This document shows, piece after piece, positions 424 through 6,158 of a DNA stretch of 20,964 nt. The translations under genes and the position numbers were made by a program. How positions within the stretch are numbered: position 1 is the first letter of the stretch; each line of letters begins with the position of its first letter. The DNA is from a virus. The notes under the pieces were generated by a model that saw only the letters and a list, made by a program, of their open reading frames with translations, searched no databases and was not told where the DNA came from. The stretch is taken from positions 1-20,964 of IMG/VR virus record IMGVR_UViG_3300042923_000979; one strand, written 5' to 3'.

Positions 424-2562
424 TTATTGTCCTCGTTTCTTCCAAATAGATTCAGTTGCATATCTTACAGCATCTATAACGTGATCATTACCATCTGGAT
501 ACCCTGATATTACATTACCTTCTTTATCTCGGTCATACTCATAATTAAGAAATTCTTGTACTGCTTCAGGACAACGCACATTATCGATAATGATTTCCTT
601 TAAAGACTGCAGCCACTTATATGAATACTTCCGACTATCAGGTCCTTTAATTGCAGATCTTGTTAACAATCCATAGTTCCTATAATCCCCTACTGATTTG
701 TTCTCTGAACTATCGCACGTTATAAGGTCATTTGCAGTAATCCCTAATTCAAGAAGCTTATCTGCGGTTTCTCTATTAGACTGTTTATTACTGGTGTATT
801 CTTGCCAAATATAAAGCCTATGTTGTGCCGGTTCATACTGTAGTCTAACAAATGAATATAGGTCAGGGTAAAAACCCCAATCGACACCGTTGTATATGCG
901 ATCAAATTGTTTAATCTCATCATCTGTAATAGCTCTTACAATAATATTATCAAATACAGCTCCACCAGTCCCATTTGCAATACCCATATATTCGTTTTCG
1001 TATGCAGTAGGATTAACCTCTTTAAGGAAGTCCGCTTCATCAAGGAAAGGCTTTCCTAGCCATTGCTTTGGTACATCTAAATATGTCGACCAAGTTACTA
1101 ATCTACTTGCTTTCGGTATCTTAATATACTTATTGGCCCAGTTATTAGCGCTCTTTGGAGGGTTGAATGACTTGAATATATATGTCTTCTCACCACCACG
1201 AACTACTGACTGTGTTACTGTTCTAACAGATTCCTCACCTTTGAATTGATCTAATTCTTCGAACCATAATATACCTATATAACCGTTCTCAACTTTCATT
1301 GATGTATCGGTTCTTAGTCCTTGGAGTTTTTCTCTATTTACTTTAATACGCCTGATAGCCTCTTTCTTCAATGCAGGAGCCTTAATACCCTTTGATTTCA
1401 TTGGATCATCATTACCACGGAAGAATATCTTTTGTCCTGTGCTTTTCTTTGTAATCTCCATAGGTGACACATTGCACTTATATTCATCCTCTAATCCTAA
1501 TGCTGATATTGCCCAGCACATTTGAGCATATACCGAATCCCTTAATGTCTGCCCTACTTGCCTAAACACTGCAGCGTGTATATCAGGATTCTTTTCTAAC
1601 AAATCCACTATTTCTAGTGAAATAAATGAAGACTTTGTGGAACCTCTACCACCAGGGAATACGTATTCGTTAAAAACTTGTTGCTCTATATCATGAATAA
1701 CCTTAATAAAGGCTGGAGCTATCATTGTAGCTGGAATACCGGTGTATTTAACTCCTTCGGTATGATTATCAGGCTCCATCTTCTTGTATTCAAGTTCGAG
1801 TTTCTTGTTGTCGAAGTCTATTTTATGTCTATCGAGAGGATTATACAGGAAGTGCTTATCTAGCCAATCCATCGACTTCTGTTTGTCAAACAATTTAATA
1901 GACACTCCGTCTCTGCCTTGTTTTACCTCAGATATGAGCTGTGTGTCTGTATTTGACGATTCTTTAAGTGACACTGTACTGACTTCAATGGTCTGCTTCT
2001 TACCATTTTTATCGTAAACTACGGCGCCATCTTCTATTACAGTCTGTTCATAATTCCCAAATGATAAATAGTCACCTATATCGGAAAAGGCTATTCTCAT
2101 GTGCAGCTCGACTATATCTTGTTCTTTGATTGCTATTTGCTCACATTTCAATGCATTTAATCGTTGCACTTCTTGCTTTATCTCACTATTTTTCCATAGT
2201 GTACTAGCATTACTACAGGCGCTTTCATACGTACATTGATAAGCCTTTTGATAGCTTTGTGCTGCATTAAATGACTTACTGTAATATATACAAAAAAGCC
2301 TTTGTTCGTGGGTAAGGTTCTCATTTAACATAGTTCCCTTAATCCCATCATCAATAGGCTTTGTATTCTTTTTTTGTATGCACACCTTTTCTTTTTTTGT
2401 GTGCACACCTTTTTTATTATCTTTAGACCATTTATATCTTGTTTTCCAAGACTTTACTGTATTTATAGTTACATCATATTTCGTGGCAATATTTCTATAT
2501 TTCATACCGCCTGTATAATCTTTTTCTGCTAATTCATAGTTTGGAGCTTTTACTTCACTCAT
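424..2562 (-). CDS. terL: Terminase with small-subunit-like N-terminus fused to large subunit
   Basis: DNA-packaging motor and nuclease. Residues below are counted from a GTG at 2571. The better start is the ATG at 2562 (three codons later), because AGGTGGTGAT is then correctly spaced. Residues about 12-50 form a helix-turn-helix like phage terminase small subunits (KYRNIATKYDVTINTVKSW). Residues about 85-140 match the Terminase_2 small-subunit pattern (LTHEQRLFCIYY, FNAAQSYQKAY). The large subunit follows: Walker A GGRGSTKS at 307-314, Walker B ILWFEEL at 434-440, and a C-terminal RNase H-like nuclease with acidic residues in VDWGF (D564), TCDSSE (D620) and DGNDHVIDAVRY (D700). At 713-715 residues it is far longer than a usual large subunit of about 420-480. 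No separate small-subunit gene lies upstream. The upstream neighbour is an accessory gene ending in a terminator. Confidence 0.93.
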   Translation of the reverse strand: MSEVKAPNYELAEKDYTGGMKYRNIATKYDVTINTVKSWKTRYKWSKDNKKGVHTKKEKVCIQKKNTKPIDDGIKGTMLNENLTHEQRLFCIYYSKSFNAAQSYQKAYQCTYESACSNASTLWKNSEIKQEVQRLNALKCEQIAIKEQDIVELHMRIAFSDIGDYLSFGNYEQTVIEDGAVVYDKNGKKQTIEVSTVSLKESSNTDTQLISEVKQGRDGVSIKLFDKQKSMDWLDKHFLYNPLDRHKIDFDNKKLELEYKKMEPDNHTEGVKYTGIPATMIAPAFIKVIHDIEQQVFNEYVFPGGRGSTKSSFISLEIVDLLEKNPDIHAAVFRQVGQTLRDSVYAQMCWAISALGLEDEYKCNVSPMEITKKSTGQKIFFRGNDDPMKSKGIKAPALKKEAIRRIKVNREKLQGLRTDTSMKVENGYIGILWFEELDQFKGEESVRTVTQSVVRGGEKTYIFKSFNPPKSANNWANKYIKIPKASRLVTWSTYLDVPKQWLGKPFLDEADFLKEVNPTAYENEYMGIANGTGGAVFDNIIVRAITDDEIKQFDRIYNGVDWGFYPDLYSFVRLQYEPAQHRLYIWQEYTSNKQSNRETADKLLELGITANDLITCDSSENKSVGDYRNYGLLTRSAIKGPDSRKYSYKWLQSLKEIIIDNVRCPEAVQEFLNYEYDRDKEGNVISGYPDGNDHVIDAVRYATESIWKKRGQ

Positions 2563-2604
2563 AATCACCACCTGCCATTTTTAGTATATTTTATGCATAA
2601 TAAA

Positions 2605-2625
2605 AGAGCCTATATTATAGGCTCT
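2605..2625 (-). terminator. Intrinsic terminator of the 302-residue accessory gene
   Basis: A perfect 9-bp stem (AGAGCCTAT / ATAGGCTCT) with a 3-nt loop is followed on the minus strand by TTTTATT. The stop codon of the upstream gene (complement of 2615-2617) lies in the loop. It separates the accessory block from the terminase gene. Confidence 0.85.
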
Positions 2626-3523
2626 GTGATTTCATTTCTATAAATTTCAGCATATTTTCTGTCAACCCTTTTAAATCAGGTTGTTCAGGAAAAAGAACTT
2701 GTACTTCCCTTGGTGTATCGATTGCAGCATATATTTGGACACCGCTTTCTAATATTCCATCTAATTTAGAAAGGCATTTTTCAACTTTAGCCTCTTCTTC
2801 TGGGTCTAATTCTTTACCAAAACTCTCTTTTAGTTCATCAACATATTTTTGCATAATTATTTTTGTTTTTTCTTTCATTATAAGATTTAACCCCTGAGAT
2901 ATTTCAGCTTTTTGAACCATTTCCCTACTAAATGTTTCTAATTGCTTTATTGCTGCTAAATCAGCCTTCGCCTTTATTGCCACATTTACAACATAACCAA
3001 CACTTTTTAAAAATACATATGTTCCAGCCAATACCAACCACATTGAACCAACGTCAGTTTTTAATACAGTAGATGTTTTACCATCTTTCTCAATCACTGG
3101 GCATTGATTTAACACAAAATCTAAATCATCAAATAACTTTACAAGCTTATTTAGTTCAATTCCATCTGGAATTTTTACTTCTAAACTATTCTCATTTTCT
3201 TTGTAGCCTAATGATTCATATAAATCAATTATTGCTTGCATATAAGTAATTAGCTTATTTAATTTATCTTTGAATTTATTTAAATTAGCTCCATTAAATT
3301 CTATATAATCTCGGTATTTATAAACAGTAGGTACAATTTCATATACTTCATCTAAATGTTCTTTCAAACATGATATACTATACAAATTATCGATTCCTTG
3401 TTTTATACTAGGCCATTTCCCAACTCTATACTCGTCTCTATTAGGTGCTATTTGTTCCCCTGTTACATTTTCAAAAAGATCAATATTATTTTTACACAAA
3501 TAATAAGTTGTATATAATCTCAT
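2615..3523 (-). CDS. Uncharacterised membrane-associated accessory protein (302 aa)
   Basis: Function not recognised. The protein is mostly alpha-helical and charged, with one hydrophobic stretch at about residues 157-183 (DVGSMWLVLAGTYVFLKSVG) that could be a membrane segment. Just before it is FVLNQCP, and just after it a Lys/Ala-rich helix. The order 'F..NQCP ... DVGSxW ... hydrophobic ... KAxxxxxKQxE' recalls, from memory, a family of bacterial proteins of unknown role. The C-terminal 120 residues look like long helices. Start ATG with AAGGGGGAT upstream. The gene has its own promoter and a terminator over its stop codon, so it is a self-contained unit, the signature of a lysogeny-expressed cargo gene ('moron'). 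A role in superinfection exclusion or defence is possible from the context only. Confidence 0.72.
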   Translation of the reverse strand: MRLYTTYYLCKNNIDLFENVTGEQIAPNRDEYRVGKWPSIKQGIDNLYSISCLKEHLDEVYEIVPTVYKYRDYIEFNGANLNKFKDKLNKLITYMQAIIDLYESLGYKENENSLEVKIPDGIELNKLVKLFDDLDFVLNQCPVIEKDGKTSTVLKTDVGSMWLVLAGTYVFLKSVGYVVNVAIKAKADLAAIKQLETFSREMVQKAEISQGLNLIMKEKTKIIMQKYVDELKESFGKELDPEEEAKVEKCLSKLDGILESGVQIYAAIDTPREVQVLFPEQPDLKGLTENMLKFIEMKSQSL

Positions 3524-3552
3524 TATTTATCCCCCTTGTATAATTTTCCATA

Positions 3553-3581
3553 ATTATACATCATATTACATTATTTTGCAA
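3553..3581 (-). promoter_or_regulatory. Sigma-A-type promoter of the 302-residue gene
   Basis: Minus strand: TTGCAA (complement of 3576-3581), 17-nt spacer, TATAAT (complement of 3553-3558), then TATGG. It closely resembles the promoter of the 175-residue gene at 4607-4635. Confidence 0.8.
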
Positions 3582-3640
3582 TATAAAGACCTACGGTTTC
3601 GATATAATTATTATCTCATTCGTTTGTATTGCTGTATAAG

Positions 3641-3663
3641 AAAAAGAACCCTGTTACGAGTTC
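3641..3663 (-). terminator. Probable intrinsic terminator downstream of the 175-residue gene
   Basis: On the minus strand GAACTC-GTAACA-GGGTTC forms a 6-bp stem (one G-U pair) followed by TTTTT. It would end transcripts coming from the gene at 4052-4579 after a 3' untranslated region of about 390 nt. Confidence 0.6.
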
Positions 3664-4051
3664 CTTTAAAATTAACAAATAAAAATATGAAACTATAACT
3701 GCTTAATATGAATAATAAAATACTATCTGAACAATAATAGTATTACAGTACTATTTACGACTTCATGTTATGATTGCTTGTCTTGTTAATAATATATACT
3801 CCTATATAAATTATTAACTGCAAACTTAACAAGAAGTCTATATCAACAATAAATATGCATATAATACACTTCCTTTCTTTCCATTGAGGTGTGATATTAT
3901 TATGCTTATTTTATTATTATATATTCATAGATAATAATTTTTAAAAGGTACCAAGTTTATAAAACGAATGCTCTAAATTTATTTAAGCATTAACTAATAA
4001 TTGTGTATGAAAATATCTTTTTTCTACAATCGTACTTTCTTTAATATACCT
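3664..4051. repeat. Non-coding AT-rich interval with nested inverted repeats
   Basis: No credible gene is visible on either strand. It contains: (1) overlapping, mutually exclusive dyads AATACTAT (3719-3726) / ATAGTATT (3737-3744) and AATAGTA (3736-3742) / TACTATT (3749-3755); (2) nested dyads CTTGTTAA (3782-3789) / TTAACAAG (3826-3833) around TTAATAAT (3786-3793) / ATTATTAA (3810-3817). A plus-strand TATAAT (3860-3865) and a GAGGTGTGAT ribosome-site-like string lead only into a 10-codon ORF starting at about 3901. The interval may be 3' untranslated sequence or a regulatory region. Confidence 0.5.
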
Positions 4052-4579: not shown

Positions 4580-4606
4580 ATTTACCCCTTTTTATCGTTT
4601 ACCATA

Positions 4607-4635
4607 ATTATACATCGTTTTAAATATCTCTGCAA
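4607..4635 (-). promoter_or_regulatory. Sigma-A-type promoter of the 175-residue gene
   Basis: Minus strand: TTGCAG (complement of 4630-4635), 17-nt spacer, TATAAT (complement of 4607-4612), then TATGG. It begins directly after the terminator of the candidate small RNA. It shares TTTATATTGCA and GATGTATAATTATGG with the promoter at 3553-3581. Confidence 0.8.
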
Positions 4636-4637
4636 TA

Positions 4638-4659
4638 TAAAAACCACCCAGGGGAGTGG
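4638..4659 (-). terminator. Intrinsic terminator of the candidate small RNA
   Basis: On the minus strand CCACTC-CCCT-GGGTGG forms a 6-bp stem with a 4-nt loop (one T-G pair), followed by TTTTTATA. It lies immediately upstream of the promoter for the gene at 4052-4579. Confidence 0.8.
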
Positions 4660-4809
4660 ATGGTCTTTAGGGCATAAAACTCTAGGGAGAGCATTTTTTG
4701 ATATCCTTATGTTATTAGGGCGATATCTATTCCCAAATCAGTCACCAAGCTTTGACACTTGGCAACCGTACACCACAGGAGGTCAACTGATAGCAAACAC
4801 TACCTTGAC
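4638..4809 (-). ncRNA. Candidate structured small RNA (about 170 nt)
   Basis: A GC-richer island in very AT-rich surroundings, with no ORF. On the minus strand an extended -10 (TGATATATT, complement of 4816-4824) would start it near 4809. Predicted helices in order: P1 ATCAGT/ACTGAT (4786-4791 with 4737-4742), enclosing P2 GACC/GGTT (with a wobble pair) and P3 CCAAG/CTTGG (4758-4762 with 4745-4749), a three-way junction; then P4 GATATC/GATATC (4722-4727 with 4700-4705); P5 CTCT/AGAG (4688-4691 with 4680-4683); and the terminator. GCCCTAA occurs twice, in the P4 loop and before the terminator, and the P5 loop also holds CCCT. It matches no RNA family I can name. Alternatives are a long leader for the next gene or a packaging-related site. 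Confidence 0.5.
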
Positions 4810-4868
4810 ACCTACAATATATCATAAAAAAGTGTATCATAATATATCATGTATATTTAATAATTAAT

Positions 4869-5462
4869 CTAACTAACTGTTGCCATTTTCCTTAAGTAAG
4901 CTCTTGTTTTATCAAGTAGTTCATTTGATGCATTATAAATTAAATTGCTTGTATCTTTCTTTTCTTTGCTAACTCCATATGTAATGTTGTTATCTTGTAA
5001 ATATTTATAACATAACAAAATAAAATCTCTATACTTTTCATACATTTCCTTATCCATAAACGATGAATACCTCGTTAAGATTAAATGTAATTCAAAACAC
5101 TTTTCCTTTGCCTTTTTTTGTAGACTACAGTCTTCTTGTTCGTGCATATCCATAATACTTTCTATGACTGCATTTGTTGCATCAATTAACTTTGGGGTAA
5201 TTTCTTGATATATATTAAATTCCACATCAAAAATTTTCAAATTTTTATATATAATTTGTTCATTTATTGCCTTGTATCTTTCCACTTCCAGTACTAACGA
5301 ATTTTTTAAATATTCAATTTGTTTATCGTACTCCGCAACTTTCTTCTTCATAAACAGATCTGCCCATATTTTAGATATAAATACAGATACTGCAATAATT
5401 ACAGCACTTGCTCCGCCAACAGCTATAACCCCTTTACCAATAATATCAAACACCTTGTCCAT
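4869..5462 (-). CDS. Uncharacterised membrane-anchored helical protein (197 aa)
   Basis: Function not recognised. An N-terminal membrane segment at about residues 8-33 (GKGVIAVGGASAVIIAVSVF) is followed by a basic stop-transfer stretch (FMKKK) and an alpha-helical coiled-coil region (41-65, KQIEYLKNSLVLEVERYK). The remaining cytoplasmic part is all helical, with KIFDVEFNIYQEITPKLIDA and a pattern of charged helices. The layout 'glycine-rich membrane helix, then coiled coil, then helical domain' is shared by many unannotated proteins of prophages and defence neighbourhoods (from memory). Start ATG with GGAGG six bases upstream and a strong promoter at 5494-5522. The candidate small RNA lies just downstream on the same strand. 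Confidence 0.72.
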   Translation of the reverse strand: MDKVFDIIGKGVIAVGGASAVIIAVSVFISKIWADLFMKKKVAEYDKQIEYLKNSLVLEVERYKAINEQIIYKNLKIFDVEFNIYQEITPKLIDATNAVIESIMDMHEQEDCSLQKKAKEKCFELHLILTRYSSFMDKEMYEKYRDFILLCYKYLQDNNITYGVSKEKKDTSNLIYNASNELLDKTRAYLRKMATVS

Positions 5463-5545: not shown

Positions 5546-5980
5546 TTAATATATTTTAAAATTAGTAAGTGCTTTACTATGCAACCTATGTGTCTGCATC
5601 CAACTGTACCCAATGTCAACACAAATCTGCTCCCACGTCTTAAACTCAATATACCTTTTATGAATGATCTGCGCTTCTACTCCATCCAGGATATCAATAA
5701 TACATTTTTCAATTTCAAGTTTCTTATCCTGGCACTCTTGCTTACACTTTAATATCTTAGATAAAACGTTGTCCAATCTAACAATATAATCAGATAAATC
5801 AGTCTGTATACTCCCTCGAGGCATATCCGTAATGTTTTGTATTTTAGCTGATTCCTCTGAGGCCCTTAGAGATTCAAGTTGCTCACCCAAAGATACTAAC
5901 TTTCTACAAAGCCTTTTATATTCATTTAGATACTCTTTTTTTGTTTCATTATTCTCTTTTTTTATATCGATCTCTTGCAC
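5546..5980 (-). CDS. Sigma-region-4-like phage late-gene regulator (DUF1492/ArpU-like)
   Basis: The C-terminal 45 residues (EAQIIHKRYIEFKTWEQICV, then DIGYSWMQTHRLHSKAL) follow the sigma-70 region 4 / ArpU pattern of a 'hhxxRY..xxxW..ia..lgys..tv.rlh..aL' helix-turn-helix. The N-terminal part is a charged helical region. Such small proteins activate late (packaging and structural) transcription in phages of Gram-positive bacteria and sit at the boundary between early and late genes, as here. An ATG exists at 5998 without a ribosome site. The GTG at 5980 has AAGGGGTGAT correctly placed, overlapping the stop of the upstream gene, so I chose GTG (144 residues). A sigma-like regulator of this type may drive the terminase/portal operon; no target promoter could be identified. 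Confidence 0.8.
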   Translation of the reverse strand: MQEIDIKKENNETKKEYLNEYKRLCRKLVSLGEQLESLRASEESAKIQNITDMPRGSIQTDLSDYIVRLDNVLSKILKCKQECQDKKLEIEKCIIDILDGVEAQIIHKRYIEFKTWEQICVDIGYSWMQTHRLHSKALTNFKIY

Positions 5981-5984
5981 TTTA

Positions 5985-6158
5985 TCACCCCTTACCATTC
6001 TTATTCATACAACTCCAAGTATGAAAATAACTCTTTTGCCCTTTAATTATTCTACAGTAGCTCCACTTGATGCCAGATTCTATATAAAATTCTTTCCCAC
6101 AGCTTGGACAAATTTCAAATCTACCTAGCTTGGTATCTATCGTTATTTCTTCTTTCAT
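5985..6158 (-). CDS. Small phage zinc-finger protein (57 aa)
   Basis: The frame contains CPSCGKEF and, about 26 residues later, YFHTWSCM: a CxxC ... HxxxC zinc-binding knuckle typical of tiny phage proteins. The stop TGA is embedded in the ribosome site of the following regulator gene, so the two are probably translationally coupled. The ATG at 6158 is the only conventional start downstream of the preceding gene's stop, but it has no good ribosome site (AAAGAGGT lies 17 nt away). The open frame continues upstream through the end of the gene at 6193-6786, so a +1 frameshift fusion cannot be excluded. Role unknown; nucleic-acid binding is plausible. Confidence 0.55.
   Translation of the reverse strand: MKEEITIDTKLGRFEICPSCGKEFYIESGIKWSYCRIIKGQKSYFHTWSCMNKNGKG

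What the first reader, a model, noticed from the sequence alone, without database searches (positions are those of the whole stretch)
4638..4824. Candidate new small RNA with a three-way junction and repeated CCCTA loops
A GC-richer, ORF-free island in AT-rich surroundings has an extended -10 on one side and an intrinsic terminator on the other. In between are nested complementary segments (ATCAGT/ACTGAT around CCAAG/CTTGG and GACC/GGTT), a GATATC hairpin, and GCCCTAA twice plus CCCT in another loop. C-rich single-stranded loops are how several Gram-positive small RNAs pair with Shine-Dalgarno sequences. G-rich ribosome sites such as AAGGGG precede the neighbouring genes. It does not match a riboswitch or RNA family I know.
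Basis: partly seen in the sequence, partly recalled or inferred. Interest (0 to 1): 0.7.

Follow-up and report, generated by a model that had tools for sequence, protein, structure and literature searches.

The report
Conserved RNA starting phage late operons
The segment is the first ~170 bases of the message for a clostridial phage's late (packaging and structural) genes; it carries an RNA hairpin, not found in Rfam, that is conserved in dozens of phages of gut-type Clostridia and always points toward the terminase gene, and it probably lets RNA polymerase pass the stop signals that follow it.

Summary
The feature is real and lies on the minus strand (fold z -4.05; plus strand -0.29). It is the leader of the late operon of a clostridial prophage: late regulator 5546-5998(-), promoter with extended -10 at 4824-4816, leader ~4809-4638, intrinsic terminator, then two genes with their own promoters and terminators, then terminase 424-2571(-). 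The three-way junction is not supported. The conserved unit is a 34-nt hairpin (4769-4736, minus). It occurs in 63 viral contigs and in 20 loci of the genome collection, nearly all Lachnospiraceae-type Clostridia. Four base pairs carry compensatory changes, and conserved G-U wobbles fix the sense strand. In 48 viral records TerL is downstream on the same strand in 29 of 29 detected; a phrog_36 late regulator is upstream in 36 of 38. Intrinsic terminators are at background upstream of the hairpin and jump right after it (41 sense, 6 antisense in 250 nt). TerL has a terminator ~36 nt before its start, leaving no room for a promoter, so read-through is needed. Best reading: a cis-acting late-leader RNA, probably a processive-antitermination signal resembling HK022 put in layout but unrelated in sequence. 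Antitermination itself is inferred, not shown. No Rfam match; no earlier description found.

The parts
5546..5998 (-). Late transcription regulator (ArpU/DUF1492/Ltr-like, phrog_36): long N-terminal helices and a sigma-region-4-like C-terminal domain
   Evidence: phrog_36 E 1.9e-23; weak TIGR01637/DUF1492/Sigma70_r4; AlphaFold model pLDDT 91, weak matches to sigma region 4
4869..5462 (-). 197-aa membrane-type ORF between the regulator and the leader, with its own sigma-A-like promoter at 5522-5494
   Evidence: a similarly placed 202-aa ORF in L005
4816..4850 (-). Probable late promoter: ATGATA repeats 10 bp apart (4850-4845, 4840-4835) and extended -10 TG-A-TATATT (4824-4816), no -35; start near 4809 (inferred)
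   Evidence: sequence; similar block in L091; 9-bp iterons before the -10 in L122, L148, L154 and others
4782..4809 (-). Hairpin 1 (GUCAAGGUAG...CUAUCAGUUGAC)
   Evidence: pair probability 0.64-0.87 for the outer pairs; a hairpin 1 with covariation in the 8-phage subset
4778..4782 (-). CCTCC motif enriched in late leaders
4736..4769 (-). Conserved hairpin 2, core element (ACGGYUGCCRRGUGUMANAGCYYGGYRRCUGAUU)
   Evidence: covariance model R1 and pair counts; found in 48 of 48 viral records searched (most were chosen for a pattern match); pair probability 0.96-1.00
4700..4727 (-). GATATC hairpin, window-specific
   Evidence: fold
4679..4692 (-). Small hairpin CTCTCCCTAGAG
   Evidence: fold
4638..4671 (-). 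Leader intrinsic terminator
   Evidence: block conserved in L005
4607..4635 (-). Sigma-A-type promoter TTGCAG-N17-TATAAT before the next gene
   Evidence: sequence; same block at 3548-3591 and in L020, L091
4052..4579 (-). 175-aa moron-like gene (apparent winged helix and membrane segments; weak matches only)
3638..3670 (-). Second sense intrinsic terminator (T tract from 3645)
   Evidence: sequence
2615..3523 (-). 302-aa gene with its own promoter (3581-3553)
2600..2626 (-). Third sense intrinsic terminator (T tract from 2607), about 36 nt before the terminase start
424..2571 (-). Terminase (small and large subunit domains)
   Evidence: PF03592 1.3e-30, PF04466 4.7e-30

Best explanation
The segment encodes, on the minus strand, the 5' leader of the phage late transcript. 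A phrog_36 regulator (sigma-region-4-like) activates a promoter just upstream (inferred from repeats and the -10). The nascent leader folds hairpin 1 and the conserved hairpin 2 within about 75 nt of the start, before RNA polymerase reaches the leader terminator. Hairpin 2 acts in cis on the polymerase that made it, directly or with a host or phage factor, so that it passes the leader terminator and the following terminators and reaches terminase and the structural genes. Without it, transcripts end as a ~170-nt RNA, as lambda's pR' makes 6S RNA without Q. The terminators, two of them behind genes with their own promoters, insulate late genes from spurious transcription. Shown: conserved hairpin, sense-strand RNA constraint, position and orientation, terminator pattern. 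Inferred: promoter use, start site, antitermination, its target.
For: Covariation: 98.8% of cells paired, double-sided changes in 4 pairs and 29 cells, 0 of 500 shuffles as good on cells paired, double-change cells and covariation score, slid versions far worse; conserved G-U wobbles (U6-G27, G7-U26, U13-G20) would be A-C mismatches on the other strand. Synteny: TerL downstream on the same strand 29/29, phrog_36 regulator upstream 36/38, 23 within 160 nt. Terminators: sense/antisense 17/24 in the 3 kb upstream, 41/6 in the first 250 nt after the hairpin (p 2e-7), 112/54 at 250-2500 nt (p 8e-6), 29/33 beyond. Window: three sense terminators between leader and TerL, the last about 36 nt before TerL; similar TerL-proximal terminators in L005, L008, L009, L015, L022. 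Repeats before the -10 match the known Ltr/RinA/Alt late promoters (PMC13123087). A subset has two stem-loops 2-7 nt apart, both with covariation, the layout of HK022 put (PMC9378689).
Against: No transcript or termination assay. Related phages without hairpin 2 (L003, L009, L015, L022, L036, L042) have the same regulator-promoter-leader-terminator-terL layout, so hairpin 2 cannot be the only way to express late genes; the regulator itself could be a Q-like antiterminator. Terminator counts before TerL in phages with and without the hairpin do not separate cleanly, and two loci (L028, L029) were wrongly put in the 'with' group there. In several phages a gene lies between promoter and hairpin. 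Terminators may simply be leaky.
Confidence: 0.55

Rival explanations
1. Lambda-Q-like: the phrog_36 protein loads at the late promoter and is itself the antiterminator; the leader with terminator is the 6S/tR' equivalent, and hairpin 2 is accessory (pause, loading or stability).
For: Gene order regulator-promoter-leader-terminator-late genes is that of Q-pR'-6S-tR'; the layout persists in phrog_36 phages lacking hairpin 2; weak similarity of regulators to Q-like families (phrog_79, PF06530).
Against: Characterised Ltr/RinA-type regulators are described as promoter activators with repeats upstream of the -10 (PMC13123087); the model resembles sigma region 4, and no Q structure appears among the 50 matches listed; it does not explain the invariant hairpin loop and wobbles.
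Confidence: 0.22
2. Trans-acting small RNA: the ~170-nt terminated leader accumulates and pairs with Shine-Dalgarno sequences through C-rich segments.
For: Promoter and terminator bracket a ~170-nt RNA; CCTCC is enriched in leaders.
Against: Invariant cis position and orientation at the late operon; the CCCTA segments are not conserved; the most conserved part is a closed hairpin; the RNA 3' of hairpin 2 differs between phages.
Confidence: 0.1
3. Leader hairpin that stabilises late mRNA or binds a phage or host protein for mRNA decay or translation control, unrelated to termination.
For: 5'-proximal strong hairpin 40 nt from the inferred start.
Against: A mere stabiliser would not need a conserved loop and wobble pattern; the hairpin is sometimes hundreds of nt from the promoter, after a gene; the sharp terminator boundary is unexplained.
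Confidence: 0.1
4. A DNA packaging (pac/cos) or other DNA-level site near terminase.
For: Always upstream of terminase.
Against: Compensatory changes and sense-strand-only G-U pairs indicate RNA; distance to TerL varies from 0.66 to 5.4 kb.
Confidence: 0.03

Closest known systems
HK022 put RNA (putL/putR)
   Same: cis RNA near the promoter, two stem-loops in a subset here, followed by terminators that must be read through (PMC9378689)
   Different: No match of model R1 to the HK022 genome (best 13.9 bits, E 0.14); early operons of a coliphage against late operons here; activity and beta' zinc-binding-domain contact untested here
Lambda Q / pR' / 6S RNA / tR' late switch
   Same: Regulator gene directly upstream of the late promoter, short leader, terminator, then late genes (lambda side from general knowledge)
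   Different: Regulator is phrog_36, sigma-4-like with upstream repeats; conserved RNA hairpin in the leader
conAn (ConAn1 + conAn2 RNA) and Tn916 canT
   Same: Gram-positive mobile elements, antitermination at the operon start, terminators inside the operon, and in pLS20 an internally promoted gene (PMC8955417, PMC11658703)
   Different: Conjugation operons; canT activity was shown for a 452-nt region; no ConAn1-like partner sought or seen here; sequences not compared
Staphylococcal/lactococcal Ltr, RinA, Alt late promoters
   Same: Small late regulator encoded just upstream of the repeat-bearing promoter of the terminase/structural transcript (PMC13123087)
   Different: The words antitermination and terminator do not occur in that paper; no structured leader seen in the passages read

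Membership tests
HK022 put antitermination RNA | Sequence/structure homology to putL/putR | tested here: not met
   R1 against the HK022 genome: best 13.9 bits, E 0.14, not credible
HK022 put antitermination RNA | Two adjacent stem-loops in ~70 nt near the promoter | tested here: inconclusive
   Met in a subset of 8 phages; window has two hairpins 13 nt apart; many phages have only a C-rich tract before hairpin 2
HK022 put antitermination RNA | Suppresses termination through RNA polymerase beta' zinc-binding domain without phage protein | not testable with these tools
   Needs transcription assays
EAR (eps-associated RNA) | Match to an Rfam model | tested here: not met
   No Rfam match in the window, and only tRNA and GP20-b in 15 homologous loci
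Known Rfam family of any kind | Match at gathering score | tested here: not met
Ltr/RinA/ArpU-type late control region | Regulator gene directly upstream of the promoter it controls, repeats before the -10, terminase downstream | tested here: met
   as anatomy across the family; regulation itself untested; in the window a 197-aa ORF lies between regulator and promoter
C-rich, Shine-Dalgarno-binding small RNA | Conserved unpaired C-rich loops | tested here: not met
   CCCTA loops not conserved; a separate CCTCC motif is enriched but pairs in hairpin 1 in the two-hairpin subset
Conjugative antitermination RNAs (conAn2, canT) | Sequence homology | not tested
   Sequences not fetched

The most novel reading that the evidence does not exclude
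A new class of RNA antiterminator: a hairpin in the nascent late leader of phages of Lachnospiraceae-type Clostridia that makes the host RNA polymerase terminator-resistant over the late operon, a Gram-positive phage counterpart of HK022 put with unrelated sequence, tied to sigma-4-like late activators.
Probability: 0.45. Interest if true: 0.8.

Novelty: new variant of a known kind. Interest (0 to 1): 0.62.

Why it matters
RNA-based processive antitermination is known from very few systems (HK022 put, EAR; conAn2 and canT in conjugative elements). A widespread candidate at the late switch of phages of gut Clostridia would show how these phages insulate and switch on late genes, and would give a compact, testable RNA that acts on Gram-positive RNA polymerase. 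Even if the mechanism differs, it is a new conserved RNA family with strong covariation and a fixed genomic address that marks late operon starts in clostridial prophages.

Tried and rejected
Plus-strand RNA: rejected (z -0.29). Three-way junction: rejected. Rfam families at relaxed thresholds: suhB 18.5 bits against a cut-off of 41, chance. Nucleotide search of phage and plasmid collections: chance matches only. Exact pattern of the window's own hairpin in viral contigs: none. 175-aa protein relatives: none. TIGR01637 as regulator probe: no hits; phrog_36 used instead. Two-hairpin pattern scan: only about 8 true members, the rest GC-rich chance matches. With/without-hairpin comparison of terminators before TerL: not discriminating. 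The local regulator HMM was built from ORFs ending just upstream of hairpins, so it mixes in some non-regulators. Sampling 391 class, 299 phylum and 299 family genomes: 2, 1 and 7 hits, each including the centre genome G056 itself, so the element is rare and concentrated in the host family of Lacrimispora. Literature searches found no earlier description; the library holds only open-licence papers.

Full report
WHAT IS THERE. The window is a 20,964-base IMG/VR virus record, with terminase (PF03592, PF04466) at 424-2571 on the minus strand. The reported island is real: GC 0.42 against 0.23-0.27 around it, no convincing ORF. It matters only on the minus strand, which folds at -60.4 kcal/mol (z -4.05, 0 of 200 shuffles as good), while the plus strand is ordinary (z -0.29). 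On that strand it runs from an extended -10 (TG-A-TATATT, 4824-4816) to an intrinsic terminator (4659-4644), a predicted RNA of about 170 nt starting near 4809. The start site is inferred.

STRUCTURE. The proposed three-way junction is not supported: forcing ATCAGT/ACTGAT costs 5.3 kcal/mol and its probability is 0.00, whereas hairpin 2 (CGGTTGCCAAG-UGUCAAAG-CTTGGTGACTG, 4768-4739) has pair probabilities of 0.96-1.00. Hairpin 1 (4809-4782) precedes it.

HOMOLOGUES. Eighty terminase loci from viral contigs gave homologues at the same place and on the same strand. A pattern drawn from these found 63 viral contigs and, in a stricter form, 20 loci in the genome collection: Lacrimispora, Blautia schinkii, [Clostridium] asparagiforme, Herbinix, Cuneatibacter, other Clostridia, and two MAGs labelled Paenibacillaceae. 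The 34-nt consensus is ACGGYUGCCRRGUGUMANAGCYYGGYRRCUGAUU (sequences). On 35 distinct sequences 98.8% of pair cells are standard pairs, four pairs change on both sides, no shuffle reaches the observed pairing or covariation score, and slid versions are far worse. The search pattern fixed many positions, so variation is underestimated; the freely varying pairs (5-28, 10-23, 11-22) carry most of the compensation. Conserved G-U wobbles would be mismatches on the opposite strand, so the selected molecule is RNA read in the late direction. A terminase-anchored search independent of the pattern found the model in 12 of 81 sources; the 11 loci among them carry it on the terminase strand, and in the window it is likewise on the terminase strand. 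Several of these sequences had also gone into the model.

ADDRESS. In 48 viral records the hairpin occurs once each (most were chosen because they match the pattern). TerL was found in 29, always downstream on the same strand at 0.66-5.4 kb. The late regulator family phrog_36 was found in 38, nearest copy upstream on the same strand in 36, 23 of them within 160 nt. The window's regulator is 5546-5998 (phrog_36 E 1.9e-23); its AlphaFold model (pLDDT 91) weakly resembles sigma region 4 at the C-terminus. Between regulator and hairpin many loci show repeats 9-10 bp apart before a -10 without a -35 (L122, L148, L154, L135, L140, L091), as in the Ltr/RinA/Alt late promoters (PMC13123087). The pooled autocorrelation signal is modest (z 2.6-4.2 at lags 9-11), so the promoter claim rests mainly on individual cases.

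TERMINATORS. Intrinsic terminators on the late strand are at background in the 3 kb upstream of the hairpin (17 sense, 24 antisense), jump in the first 250 nt after it (41 against 6), stay raised to 2.5 kb (112 against 54) and fall to background (29 against 33). Some of these loci are related, so the p values are optimistic. In 45 of 64 loci a terminator lies within 400 nt. In the window three sense terminators (4643, 3645, 2607) separate the leader from terminase, two of them behind a gene with its own sigma-A-type promoter. The last lies about 36 nt before the terminase start, leaving no space for a promoter; similar terminators stand 20-70 nt before terL in L005, L008, L009, L015 and L022. 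Late transcription from the upstream promoter therefore has to read through terminators.

MECHANISM. The most economical reading is a cis-acting leader RNA that helps the polymerase through these terminators. The layout matches RNA antiterminators of other mobile elements: HK022 put (two stem-loops close to the promoter; PMC9378689) and conAn (antitermination at the operon start, an internally promoted gene followed by a terminator; PMC8955417). In a subset of eight phages the element is two stem-loops 2-7 nt apart, both with compensatory changes. It is not a put homologue by sequence. The main weakness is that phages with the same regulator and layout but without hairpin 2 exist, so the regulator may itself be the antiterminator, as lambda Q is, with hairpin 2 an accessory; a CCTCC motif is enriched in both groups of leaders (15/29 and 11/28 against 2.4 and 1.5 expected) and may be a further determinant. 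Nothing here measures transcription; antitermination is inferred.

NOVELTY. No Rfam family matches the element in the window or in 15 homologous loci, where Rfam found only tRNA and GP20-b. No description was found in the open literature searched. I rate it a new RNA family and a new variant of a known kind, late-leader / antitermination RNA.

Noticed in passing
window 4602-4645 and 3548-3591 (minus); also in L020, L091 (359-392), L139: A similar promoter block (TTGCAR-N17-TATAAT within a ~67-nt repeat, 79% identical) stands before two unrelated moron-like genes and after the leader terminator in other phages, suggesting promoter cassettes that travel with the inserted genes.
   Followed up: partly
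L005 5048-5119, L017 3715-3789, L034 4790-4865, L039 7491-7565, L044 7496-7570, L064 2648-2722, L140 1269-1337: tRNA genes (mostly Ile-TAT or Met-CAT) lie a short way downstream of the start of the late leader, as if it were a preferred place for tRNA cargo.
   Followed up: no
L085 and L130, just after the late promoter: A variant of hairpin 2 (GGCTTCTGAGC-GMAACA-GCTYRGGGGCC) directly after the promoter, in phages that carry the canonical hairpin again after the next gene.
   Followed up: no
L092, L098, L100, L114, L127 and others, downstream of hairpin 2; L084, L108: Conserved pseudoknot-like modules follow hairpin 2 (AAAGCCGACGTTCTTATGCTTTCTTCATGGCTTTTCAAATCGGATAGAAAGC; CTTTGTTTCCTGGTTTC...AAACAAAAACCAGAG) and differ between phages.
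   Followed up: no
L003 6912-7090: A phage without a model match has a leader whose terminator hairpin (GAGCTGCTAGAGAACATCTAGGTGGCTCTTTT) keeps the CTGC/GGTGGC wobble pattern of hairpin 2, perhaps a degenerate or fused version.
   Followed up: partly
leaders with and without hairpin 2: CCTCC, an anti-Shine-Dalgarno-like motif, is strongly enriched in the first 140 nt after the late regulator, with or without hairpin 2; its function is unexplained.
   Followed up: partly
L064 7615-7671, L020 12942-13007: Rfam GP20-b cis-regulatory motif downstream of terL in the same phages.
   Followed up: no
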